A DNA stretch of 33,904 nt from Pseudomonadota bacterium (GTDB lineage Bacteria; Pseudomonadota; Gammaproteobacteria; GCA-001735895): contig JADFMY010000022.1 in the NCBI GenBank assembly GCA_022563685.1, forward strand, positions 1-33,904. Reading direction: 5' to 3'. The position numbers were made by a program, and so were the translations under genes. This document shows, piece by piece, positions 19,909-28,179 of this stretch. The notes under the pieces were generated by a model. That model did no database searches. It saw only the letters and a list, made by a program, of their open reading frames with translations, and was not told where the DNA came from. How positions within the stretch are numbered: the stretch's first letter is position 1; every line of letters starts with the position of its first letter.

Positions 19909-22900
19909 ATGCCACTAGATGCAAACAATGACCACAACGATGGTCTGAGGTCGGACGAGAACAATCCGACTGGCGCTGCCCTTGTTATCGGCGGTGGCAT
20001 CGCGGGTATGCAGGCCTCGCTTGATCTTGCCAACACCGGTTACAAGGTTTTCATGGTCGAAAAGAACTCGGCCATCGGCGGCAACATGGCGCGTCTGGAC
20101 AAAACATTTCCGTCCAACGATTGCGCCATGTGCACGATCTCGCCCCGTCTGGTTGATTCGGAGCAACATCTGGACGTGGAAGTCCTGACTAATAGCGAAG
20201 TGGTCAAGGTGACGGGAGAAGCCGGAAACTTTACCGCAACCCTGCACACGAAGCCACGGTTTATCGATGCCGATAAATGCACCGCCTGCGGCAAGTGCGC
20301 CGAAGTCTGCCCGGTGCCGAGTGAAAATGATTTTGACGGCTTACTGGTCACACGCCGCGCAGCCTACCAGCTGTATCCGCAAGGCGCACCCAATGCGTTC
20401 GCTATCGACAAGCGTGGTGTCGCACCTTGCCGTGATGCCTGTCCCGCCGGGCAGCGTGCACAGGGCTACATCGCCATGATCGCCGAAGGACGCGTTGAAG
20501 AGGCCTATCGTTCCATCAAACGAGACAACCCCTTCCCCGGTATTTGCGGTCGCATCTGTAACGCGCGTTGCGAGCTTGCGTGCAGCCGTGGCAAGGTCGA
20601 TGAGCCGGTCAATATCCGCAGCCTGAAGCGCTATGTCACCGATATCATGATGCGCAGGGAACGAGTCGCCCCGCAAAAGGCTGAACGCCTGTATGACGAG
20701 AAAATCGCCATTATCGGTGCTGGCCCCTGTGGTCTGACTGCGGCGCAGGATCTCACCCTGGCAGGCTACCAGGTGACCGTGTTTGATGCCCTGCCGGTGG
20801 CCGGCGGCATGCTGCGCGTCGGTGTCCCCGAATATCGTCTGCCTGTAGACATCATCGAACGTGAAGTCGCCGACATTATCGATCTGGGCGTGGACTTGCG
20901 TCTGAATACGACGGTCGACAATCTGGATGACCTTCTGAATAACGGATACAGGTCCGTGCTGATCTCCGTGGGCGCCCATGAAGGGGTCAAGTTGAATGTC
21001 CCTGGCAACGATTTGCAGGGCGTTTTGATTAACACCGATTTCTTGCGTGATGTCCGCATGTGGGAGCGCGATAAGCAAGCCATGGTCAGTGCCGGCAAAT
21101 CAGACCCTGCCACCTCTGTCAGGGGCAAGCGGGTGGTGGTGATTGGTGGCGGTGATGTCGCGGTCGATGTGGCTCGATCATCCATGCGGCTTGGTGCTGC
21201 GAGCGTAGACATGGCCGTGCGCGGCAGCAGTGGCCGGATGCCGGCTTCTGATCATGAGATTGAAGCTGCCCATGAAGAGGGCATCACGATGCATGTGAGC
21301 CTTAATTTTCTGCGCATCCACGATGATGGCAATGGCAATGCTACCGGCCTGGAAGTCCAGGACGTGGAGCGTTTTGAGACCAACGATGAGGGCCGCAAAA
21401 TTGCCGTCATCAAGGAAAATTCCGAACACGTGCTTCACGCCGACGTGATTATCTTCTCGGTTGGACAGAAAGCCGGCCTGGCGTTTATCCCCGAGGATGC
21501 CGGTGTCAGGCTCACCGCCTGGGGCGAAGTCGATGTGCTTAGCCACTCTACTTATGCCACCGACAGGCCTGGCGTGTTTGCCGCCGGTGATGCAGTAACG
21601 GGCACCGCCTTCGTGATCGATGCCGTGGCCAGTGGCCACAAGGTTGCCACCGCCATGCAGCATTACCTGCGTGGCGAAGATATGGAGGTCGCTGAGCCGG
21701 AACACCCCATCGCGACTTTTACCCAGGAGGAGCTCGATGCCCGCGTTTTGAAAGGCGAGCTGGTCCCGACCCCGCGCGTGAAGTTCTCCACCTTGTCTGT
21801 CGAGGACAGAATCGGCAACTTTATCGAAGTTGATCAGGTATATACTGACGAGGAAGCCATGGCTGAGGCAGCACGCTGCCTCAACTGCGGTATCTGCTCG
21901 GAATGCCTGGCCTGTGAAGATGCCTGTGAAATAGGAGCTATCGACATGGACGGGATGGCAAAGACCTATGAGGTCAAGGTCGGCGCCGTGATCATGGCGC
22001 CGGGCTACAGGCTCTACGACGCCGGGCACTCTGAAGAGTTCGGTCTGGGTCGTTACCCCAACGTGCTGACATCGATTCAATACGAACGCCTGTTATCGGC
22101 CTCCGGCCCGACCAATGGCAAGGTGCTGCGTCCGTCGGACAAGCAACGGCCAAAGCGCATAGCCTGGTTACAGTGCATCGGCTCGCGCGATGCCAACCAT
22201 GACTACTGCTCATCTGTATGCTGCATGTACGCCACCAAACAGGTCACCATGACAAAGGGCCACTGGCCTGACATCGACCTGGAAATATTCATCATGGACC
22301 TGCGCTCCTTTGGTAAGGGCTATGAGGCCTATTACAAAAATGCGCGTGACAATTTGAAGGTTCGTTACACCCGCAGCCGTGTCTCCAAGATCATCGAAGA
22401 CCCCGTTACGAAAAACCTGGTGCTGCGCTACATGGATCGCGGCGAAAGCGCAAAGGGTGAAACCAACGAACGTATTCGCGAAGAAATCTTCGACATGGTC
22501 GTGCTCTCCGTCGGTATGGAAATCGACGAGAGCACCAAAGAACTGGCCAGGCGTCTCAAGGTGGAAGTGGACGACTACGGTTTTTGCAAGACCATACAGT
22601 ACGATCCCTTGCAGACCAGCCGCGCAGGCTTTTATGCCGTTGGCCCATTTCGCGAGCCAAAAGATATTCCTGAGTCTCTGCTGGAAGCAAGTGGCGCAGC
22701 CGCTCAGGCCGGGGCCATGCTGCGCAAGTCGCGTGGCACCCTGACCCGTGAAGCCGTGTTCCCGCCCGAGCGGGATATCGCATCGGAAAATCCCAGGGTC
22801 GCCGTCTTTGTGTGTCATTGCGGCACCAACATTGGCGGCTATCTGGATGTTCCAAAGGTAGCCGAGTACGCCAGGGGCCTGCCTGGTGTTATTTATTCGG

Positions 22901-26742: not shown

Positions 26743-28179
26743 ATGGCGAATGCGCAGGCACAAAGTACGAATAGTCCCTGCCCCCTGGCAATGAGCAGCC
26801 CCTTGCCGCTGTCTGAAGTCGTCCGTGAGGCAACCGGGGACAATGTCTTCAAATGCTACCAGTGCATCAAGTGCACCAGCGGCTGTCCCCTGGCCGATCA
26901 GTTCGATCTCACTCCCAACCAGGTCATGCGCAGCGTACAATTGAACGACCTGGCTGTTCTGCAAAGCAGGTCCATCTGGTTGTGTGCGTCGTGCCATACC
27001 TGCACCACGCGTTGTCCGCAGCAAATCGATGTGACCGGGGTAATGGATGCGCTGCGAATCGAATCGCGCAAGCGCGGCGTGAAACCGGCGGTAGCGGAAA
27101 TCGCCAAATTCAATGATATTTTCATGCGTAGCGTGAAAATATTCGGTCGCGTCTACGAGCTGGGGCTAATGGCAAGCTTTAACATGGCGCTGCTCCAGCC
27201 GTTGCGTGATTTAAAGCTCGGCAGGCGCATGTTTGCCAGGGGTAAGTTGAGTATCTGGCCGCACTTTGGCAAGGCCAGGGCCAATGCAACGAAGCTCCCC
27301 CATAATCCAAAAGCCATCGGCTACTACCCAGGTTGCTCGCTCAGTTCGACTTCCGTCGAATACGGCAAATCGGTCAAAAACATTGCCAGCGCCATGGATA
27401 TCGAATTGATCGAACCTGAAAACTGGAGCTGTTGTGGCGCGAGCGCGGCGCACGCAACCGATCCCAAAGCTGCGAATGTTTTGCCCATGAGCTCGGTAGC
27501 CAGGATCGAGCAGATGGGCCTCGACACCGTGACCTCGCCGTGCAGTGCCTGTTTCTCGCGCCTCAAACATGCCGAGCACTCGGTCACCAGCAACGAGGCG
27601 GTGAGCAAGGAAGTCAGCGATGCGCTAGGTTATGAGTATAAAGGCACGGTAAAGGTCCAGCATCTGCTGGACGTGATCGTCGATCGCGCCGGTCTGGATG
27701 AAGTCAGGAAACGTGTCAGCAATCCGCTCAAGGGCCTCAAACTTGCCTGTTACTACGGCTGCCTGATCACCCGGCCCACCGGTGTTACCGGAGCCGACAA
27801 CCCTGAATACCCGCAGAAGATGGATCGGCTGGTCAGGACACTGGGCGCAGAAACCGTGGACTGGTCGCGCAAGACCGAATGCTGCGGCGGCTCACTGGGG
27901 ATCAACCAGACAAAGGTCGCGGTCAAAATGATGCAGCGTATCATGGACGACGCGAAAGCCTGCGGCGCCGAAGCCATCGTCACCATGTGCCCGATCTGCC
28001 ACCTCAACCTGGACTCCCGTCAGGGCGCCATGGGCTACCAGGAGGCCGAAGAAATCCCCATCTTCCAGGCCACCCAGCTCATGTCGCTGGCATTCGGGCA
28101 GGGCGAAGACAAGGCCGCAATCAAGCACAACTTGACCGATCCGAAGCCTTATCTACGAGAGAAGGGCGTCTTGATCTGA
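26743..28179 (+). CDS. hdrCB: Fused HdrC-HdrB heterodisulfide reductase-like subunit (alternative GTG start at 26731)
   Basis: CYQCIKCTSGCPL and CASCHTCTTRCPQQ (HdrC); GYYPGCSLS...WSCCGAS...CSACF and ACYYGC...TECCGGS...CPICH (two HdrB CCG motifs). Confidence 0.92.
   Translation: MANAQAQSTNSPCPLAMSSPLPLSEVVREATGDNVFKCYQCIKCTSGCPLADQFDLTPNQVMRSVQLNDLAVLQSRSIWLCASCHTCTTRCPQQIDVTGVMDALRIESRKRGVKPAVAEIAKFNDIFMRSVKIFGRVYELGLMASFNMALLQPLRDLKLGRRMFARGKLSIWPHFGKARANATKLPHNPKAIGYYPGCSLSSTSVEYGKSVKNIASAMDIELIEPENWSCCGASAAHATDPKAANVLPMSSVARIEQMGLDTVTSPCSACFSRLKHAEHSVTSNEAVSKEVSDALGYEYKGTVKVQHLLDVIVDRAGLDEVRKRVSNPLKGLKLACYYGCLITRPTGVTGADNPEYPQKMDRLVRTLGAETVDWSRKTECCGGSLGINQTKVAVKMMQRIMDDAKACGAEAIVTMCPICHLNLDSRQGAMGYQEAEEIPIFQATQLMSLAFGQGEDKAAIKHNLTDPKPYLREKGVLI

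What the first reader, a model, noticed from the sequence alone, without database searches (positions are those of the whole stretch)
19909..28179. Five-gene Hdr-MvhD-MetV-MetF operon: candidate electron bi/confurcating methylene-THF reductase complex
Seen: hdrA-like, mvhD, metV, metF and hdrCB follow each other on the + strand with short gaps or overlaps. Established: Moorella thermoacetica has a MetFV-HdrABC-MvhD complex. Inference: the same logic here, with an NAD(P)H module built into HdrA and no hydrogenase in the window, could oxidise methyl-THF to methylene-THF. An Hdr-linked MetVF set in what looks like a proteobacterium beside methylamine genes is unusual.
Basis: partly seen in the sequence, partly recalled or inferred. 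Interest (0 to 1): 0.9.

Follow-up and report, generated by a model that had tools for sequence, protein, structure and literature searches.

The report
Hdr-linked MetVF operon in sponge gammaproteobacterium
A likely aerobic marine bacterium, apparently a sponge associate, carries the complete gene set of an electron-splitting folate enzyme known from strict anaerobes such as Moorella; here it probably helps burn methyl groups stripped from osmolytes rather than make acetate.

Summary
Five adjacent + strand genes (19909-28179) encode HdrA, MvhD, MetV, MetF and a fused HdrC-HdrB. HdrA carries a GltD/NfnB-like NAD(P)H domain and two flavin domains, both with the E/K residue pair of bifurcating HdrA. 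That is the published M. thermoacetica architecture, so this is a type IV (Hdr-type) methylene-THF reductase; its identity is not new.

New here is the setting. The order hdrA-mvhD-metV-metF-hdrCB recurs exactly in 39 of 80 fetched loci, in Chloroflexi and in scattered Alpha-, Beta- and Gammaproteobacteria. All proteobacterial copies form one clade nested among Chloroflexi. The host is a gammaproteobacterial MAG with a heme-copper oxidase, Rnf, a canonical metF beside metH, a corrinoid methyl-transfer cluster and seven MttB homologues; no CODH and no NiFe hydrogenase were found. The operon is patchy (4 of 32 genus genomes) and lies in a segment (about 15.8-28.2 kb) missing from an otherwise syntenic relative. 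The neighbouring MttB/DMGDH genes also occur without it.

Best reading: methyl-THF oxidation, with electrons bifurcated to NAD+ and a higher-potential acceptor, probably quinone. Direction and third carrier are inferred. New variant of a known kind; interest about 0.55.

The parts
19909..24537 (+). hdrA (1542 aa): N-terminal HdrA Rossmann/4Fe-4S part (about 21-169), GltD/NfnB-like NAD(P)H insert (about 170-590), remainder of flavin domain 1 (about 656-948), MvhD-like domain (about 955-1100), flavin domain 2 (about 1100-1450), C-terminal dicluster ferredoxin (1459-1521)
   Evidence: Pfam/NCBIfam; alignment to solved HdrA 5odc/8rvu; E726/K777 and E1251/K1291 conserved in 33-35 of 35 homologues
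24538..24993 (+). mvhD ([2Fe-2S] electron adapter)
   Evidence: PF02662 E=2.8e-47
24990..25676 (+). metV (228 aa, Fe-S subunit; 13 Cys conserved in at least 82 of 83 homologues)
   Evidence: PF12225 E=1.6e-34; family alignment A1; Cys counts
25693..26721 (+). metF (methylene-THF reductase catalytic subunit)
   Evidence: PF02219 E=2.1e-38; E42 and D131 invariant in 80 of 80
26731..28179 (+). hdrCB (HdrC and HdrB fused; two 4Fe-4S motifs and two CCG motifs)
   Evidence: cluster cysteines conserved in 45 of 45, except C336 and C407 (numbering from the ATG start) at 37 of 45
15785..28229 (.). segment absent from the syntenic relative G016 (approximate boundaries): GGDEF gene, AIRS gene, SPL-like gene and the operon
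   Evidence: DNA comparison with G016:C82; ADH-to-HAD order also found in G017 and G024
28201..33904 (.). flanking HAD phosphatase (-), DMGDH-like DAO-GCV_T protein (-), MttB homologue (-), LysR-family regulator (+): context, not part of the operon

Best explanation
The operon encodes a type IV (Hdr-type) methylene-THF reductase complex, MetVF-HdrA(GltD)-MvhD-HdrCB, acquired laterally and used in a respiring, non-acetogenic gammaproteobacterium. Shown: composition, gene order, cofactor motifs, the bifurcation signature in both HdrA flavin domains, conserved synteny, and a patchy, probably lateral distribution. Inferred: it runs in the oxidative direction. MetF takes electrons from methyl-THF made by corrinoid methyltransferases, and MetV, MvhD and HdrCB relay them to HdrA. 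HdrA then splits pairs of electrons between NAD+ (via the GltD domain, uphill) and a higher-potential acceptor, most likely the quinone pool (downhill). Methylene-THF would continue to formate or serine.
For: Architecture equals the published M. thermoacetica complex, including the GltD insert and E/K pairs in both flavin domains (PMC9430772). Order conserved in 39 of 80 loci. The host has canonical metF plus metH, so biosynthetic methyl-THF supply is covered. A corrinoid cluster (RACo, pterin methyltransferase, B12 protein, MetF plus short MetV) and seven MttB homologues imply methyl-THF production, as in R. pomeroyi (PMC12478193). FTHFS is present for downstream oxidation. COX1 is present; no Prismane-family CODH and no NiFe hydrogenase. 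Standard-potential arithmetic: 2 methyl-THF to NADH plus ubiquinol is about -37 kJ, whereas methyl-THF to NAD+ alone is +23 kJ. HdrCB scores best against a menaquinol:fumarate reductase SdhE-type subunit (171 bits, below its cut-off of 500). The same NAD+/quinone split has been proposed for Moorella on methanol (PMC13391211), and quinone-linked methyl-THF oxidation for T. phaeum (PMC6895022).
Against: No expression, interaction or activity data for this organism. The third electron carrier is unproven even in Moorella and Sporomusa. A separate MetF plus short MetV pair already sits in the corrinoid cluster, so methyl-THF oxidation may not need this operon. Most of the genus lacks it (28 of 32). 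No membrane anchor gene lies in the operon. In Kiloniellales, ferredoxin-oxidoreductase genes follow directly, pointing to ferredoxin instead. The MAG is incomplete (92%) with 6% contamination, so absences are provisional.
Confidence: 0.5

Rival explanations
1. Ferredoxin confurcation: the complex oxidises methyl-THF together with reduced ferredoxin and makes NADH; in the opposite direction NADH is bifurcated to methylene-THF and ferredoxin. Ferredoxin is supplied by Rnf or 2-oxoacid:ferredoxin oxidoreductases.
For: 2-oxoacid:ferredoxin oxidoreductase genes lie directly downstream of hdrCB in three Kiloniellales/Rhodospirillales loci and nearby in Chloroflexi; an AFOR gene lies near the operon in L085; the host has Rnf; energy is near balance at -420 mV (+4 kJ) and negative at -500 mV (-12 kJ).
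Against: Ferredoxin was not used by the Moorella enzyme or by S. ovata preparations; no ferredoxin oxidoreductase gene adjoins the operon in this window; feeding Rnf-made ferredoxin back would be circular in a respiring cell.
Confidence: 0.25
2. [quoted passage not shown]
For: This is the direction studied in M. thermoacetica and S. ovata; several Desulfobacterota loci carry an acetyl-CoA synthase-like gene and many Chloroflexi loci a CooC-like ATPase gene near the operon (cluster representatives, identified by eye, not by a family search).
Against: The host has canonical metF beside metH, and no CODH was found, so no acetyl-CoA pathway sink for methyl-THF is apparent.
Confidence: 0.15
3. Recently transferred passenger or binning artefact with no physiological role in this host.
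For: Patchy in the genus (4 of 32); segment absent from a syntenic relative; 0 of 398 other sampled Pseudomonadota carry long MetV.
Against: Both flanks match same-genus contigs; all five frames are intact; three further same-genus genomes carry the operon on other contigs; a 97% identical HdrCB lies on an independent 97-kb contig.
Confidence: 0.1

Closest known systems
Type IV (Hdr-type) methylene-THF reductase of Moorella thermoacetica (HdrCBA-MvhD-MetVF; Mock 2014, described in PMC9430772 and PMC8760232)
   Same: Same six functional units; HdrA with GltD insert, two TrxR-like flavin domains with E/K pairs; hdrA-mvhD-metV-metF adjacency
   Different: HdrC and HdrB fused and placed last; the host apparently has no CODH and no NiFe hydrogenase and does have a heme-copper oxidase and Rnf. 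No residue-level comparison with the Moorella proteins was made
Sporomusa ovata Hdr-type MTHFR (PMC9430772)
   Same: MetVF plus HdrBCA-MvhD, membrane-associated electron transfer proposed
   Different: S. ovata HdrA is shorter and lacks the GltD domain and one E/K pair
Thermacetogenium phaeum MetVF-Hdr cluster (PMC6895022)
   Same: Proposed methyl-THF oxidation to quinone through Hdr proteins
   Different: hdrBC lies elsewhere, beside a formate dehydrogenase; a syntrophic anaerobe with the acetyl-CoA pathway
Chloroflexi (Anaerolineae) operons hdrA-mvhD-metV-metF-hdrCB
   Same: Same order and fusion; the proteobacterial clade nests among them
   Different: Many lie near CooC-like ATPase and ferredoxin-oxidoreductase genes, fitting an acetyl-CoA pathway setting
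MtgBCD-MetF2 route of Ruegeria pomeroyi (PMC12478193)
   Same: Aerobic marine bacteria oxidising methyl-THF made by MttB-family and corrinoid proteins; the host's C159 cluster resembles it
   Different: Relies on MetF2, with no Hdr complex reported in the passages read

Membership tests
Type IV (Hdr-type) methylene-THF reductase | metV and metF encoded together with hdrA, hdrB, hdrC and mvhD | tested here: met
   hdrC and hdrB are fused
Type IV (Hdr-type) methylene-THF reductase | Bifurcation signature (E and K) in HdrA flavin domains | tested here: met
   E726/K777 align with M. thermolithotrophicus E356/K409 (read from the alignment); E1251/K1291 in domain 2 found by motif; conserved in 33-35 of 35
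Type IV (Hdr-type) methylene-THF reductase | NAD(P)H-binding domain in HdrA (M. thermoacetica subtype) | tested here: met
   GltD/Nfn-like insert, residues about 170-590
Type IV (Hdr-type) methylene-THF reductase | Proteins form a complex and catalyse methyl-THF/methylene-THF redox chemistry with two electron carriers | not testable with these tools
   Needs purification, pull-down and assays
Acetogenic (Wood-Ljungdahl) setting of known type IV enzymes | CO dehydrogenase/acetyl-CoA synthase in the genome | tested here: not met
   No PF03063 match in the 92%-complete MAG; ACS itself was not searched
Type II MetVF (free-standing) | metVF without Hdr genes | tested here: not met
   hdrA, mvhD and hdrCB flank metVF
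H2:heterodisulfide complex (MvhADG-HdrABC) | NiFe hydrogenase subunits MvhA/MvhG | tested here: not met
   No PF00374 match in the genome

The most novel reading that the evidence does not exclude
A flavin-based electron-bifurcating methyl-THF oxidase working in oxygen-respiring proteobacteria outside the Wood-Ljungdahl pathway, coupling osmolyte methyl-group oxidation to both NADH and quinol, acquired in one transfer from Chloroflexi and then spread patchily among marine Alpha-, Beta- and Gammaproteobacteria.
Probability: 0.35. Interest if true: 0.8.

Novelty: new variant of a known kind. Interest (0 to 1): 0.55.

Why it matters
A 2018 survey of bifurcating enzymes found this complex only in obligate anaerobes (PMC6085437). 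Finding it intact in a genome with a heme-copper oxidase and no detected CODH would show that bifurcation is used for C1 oxidation in respiring bacteria. It would also offer a setting without the acetyl-CoA pathway in which to identify the still unknown third electron carrier of type IV methylene-THF reductases. It bears on how sponge-associated and other marine bacteria gain energy from betaine-type osmolytes.

Tried and rejected
GC shift as evidence of transfer: window GC rises from about 0.48 to 0.57 near 19.9 kb, but per-gene GC of the operon (0.54-0.59) equals that of flanking core genes (ADH 0.569, DMGDH 0.577), so it proves nothing. Chimeric contig: rejected, because both flanks are syntenic with same-genus contigs. 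Pyrrolysine MttB: rejected; no PylS above cut-off in 32 genus genomes, and the C52 MttB with TAG is a fragment with the stop near residue 210, not at the pyrrolysine site. MetV structure: the model was poor (pLDDT 68) and the fold search gave no significant match; no solved MetV relative by sequence. Plasmid collection: no match. NADH versus NADPH preference: the GltD motif reads VRGS here where several Desulfobacterota and some Chloroflexi copies read YRRS/YRRT; suggestive of NADH but not decisive.

Full report
1. The observation. Five + strand genes occupy 19909-28179: hdrA (1542 aa), mvhD (0 bp after hdrA), metV (4 bp overlap), metF (16 bp gap) and hdrCB (about 10-20 bp gap depending on the start). 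Pfam and NCBIfam confirm each.

2. HdrA. Alignment to solved HdrA chains shows two HdrA-like flavin halves. The first is interrupted at about residue 170 by a GltD/NfnB-like NAD(P)H domain (170-590) and resumes at about 656. An MvhD-like domain (955-1100), a second flavin domain and a C-terminal dicluster ferredoxin domain follow. The glutamate and lysine used to separate bifurcating from non-bifurcating HdrA (E356/K409 in M. thermolithotrophicus; PMC9430772) are present in both halves, E726/K777 and E1251/K1291, conserved in 35, 34, 33 and 35 of 35 full-length homologues. The first pair was read from the alignment; the second was placed by motif, not by a structural alignment. The cited paper gives the same architecture and both E/K pairs for M. 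thermoacetica HdrA, so the NAD(P)H module is a shared feature, not a novelty. The cysteines of the MetV family and of the HdrCB clusters are essentially invariant.

3. Distribution. A scan of 85,488 species genomes gave 100 confirmed MetV relatives, of which 80 were kept. The exact order hdrA-mvhD-metV-metF-hdrCB appears in 39; most of the others are cut by contig ends, and in six of the 39 (Desulfobacterota/Syntrophaceae) hdrC and hdrB are separate genes. Hosts include Rhodospirillales, Rhodobacteraceae, Kiloniellales, Sterolibacterium, Acidiferrobacteraceae, Myxococcales and many Anaerolineae. In a FastTree of MetV+MetF all proteobacterial and myxobacterial/deltaproteobacterial copies of this type form one clade (support 1.0) inside Chloroflexi, and the window groups with same-genus copies. 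This suggests one transfer from Chloroflexi and later spread; the rooting and one fast tree are the only support. In a sample of 399 Pseudomonadota genomes only the window's own had it, so it is rare there. A few Rhodospirillales/Magnetovibrio loci carry metVF with an MvhD-ferredoxin fusion and no hdrA nearby.

4. The host. The MAG (3.0 Mb, 201 contigs, 92% complete, 6% contaminated) belongs to a genus of 32 held genomes; three members coincide in coordinates with public records titled Gammaproteobacteria. That these come from sponges is my inference from the isolate naming. It has RnfC, COX1 and FTHFS. No Prismane-family CODH and no NiFe hydrogenase were found. MTHFR homologues: canonical metF beside metH (C182), this operon, a MetF with short MetV in a cluster with RACo, a pterin methyltransferase, DUF1638 and a corrinoid protein (C159), one beside a DAHP synthase gene (C5), and a contig-end fragment. 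Seven MTTB-family proteins are present. Long MetV occurs in only 4 of the 32 genus genomes, while the short form occurs in most.

5. The site. G016 contig C82 is syntenic on both sides but lacks window 15785-28229: ADH is followed by HAD within about 0.9 kb. The same ADH-to-HAD order occurs in G017 and G024. Either the segment was inserted here or it was lost elsewhere; the operon lies on other contigs, in other surroundings, in G004, G012 and G028, so it has moved. A roughly 155-bp dispersed repeat, also on several other contigs, starts at 15822 at the left edge. The right-hand DMGDH/MttB block occurs without the operon in at least seven relatives, so proximity is weak evidence of shared function, although L025 also has DMGDH 6 kb downstream in the same orientation.

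6. Mechanism. Methyl-THF (-200 mV) cannot reduce NAD+ (-320 mV) alone (+23 kJ). Splitting electrons between NAD+ and ubiquinone gives about -37 kJ, and with menaquinone about -1 kJ, at standard potentials (the ubiquinone potential is from general knowledge and the range quoted in PMC9430772). This split is the 2026 proposal for Moorella on methanol (PMC13391211). HdrCB scores slightly better against an SdhE-type quinol-linked subunit than against HdrB, both below cut-off. The ferredoxin alternative is kept because 2-oxoacid:ferredoxin oxidoreductase genes follow hdrCB directly in three Kiloniellales/Rhodospirillales loci.

7. Verdict. This is a member of the type IV methylene-THF reductases with a fused HdrCB, in a host type where a published survey had not seen it (PMC6085437, obligate anaerobes only). 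In the seven paper searches made I found no report of this operon in respiring proteobacteria; subscription papers are not covered, so priority is not established.

Noticed in passing
window 10504-10664 and 15822-15988: A roughly 155-bp dispersed repeat with 12-19 bp internal repeats and an inverted repeat, 93-99% identical copies on several other contigs of the MAG (C45, C49, C62, C79, C80, C103, C147); looks like a miniature mobile element, one copy at the left edge of the segment missing from G016.
   Followed up: partly
window 17387-19684: AIR-synthase-related gene and spore photoproduct lyase-like radical SAM gene in tandem; the pair also lies beside the operon in G012 (L023) and an SPL-like gene precedes hdrA in L085.
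   Followed up: partly
L034:13130-15612, L035, L036: 2-oxoacid:ferredoxin oxidoreductase genes start immediately after hdrCB in Kiloniellales/Rhodospirillales, suggesting a ferredoxin link.
   Followed up: partly
L077, L079, L083: Magnetovibrio/Rhodospirillaceae loci with metVF preceded by an MvhD-type protein (in L079 fused to Fer2 and dicluster ferredoxin domains) and no hdrA found nearby: a possible further MTHFR type.
   Followed up: no
G000:C52:22008-22652 (L115): MttB-family gene with an in-frame TAG near residue 210 close to the contig end; not at the pyrrolysine position and no PylS found.
   Followed up: yes
L025:7206-9050: URO-D methyltransferase fused to a corrinoid-binding domain between the operon and DMGDH in another proteobacterial MAG.
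   Followed up: no
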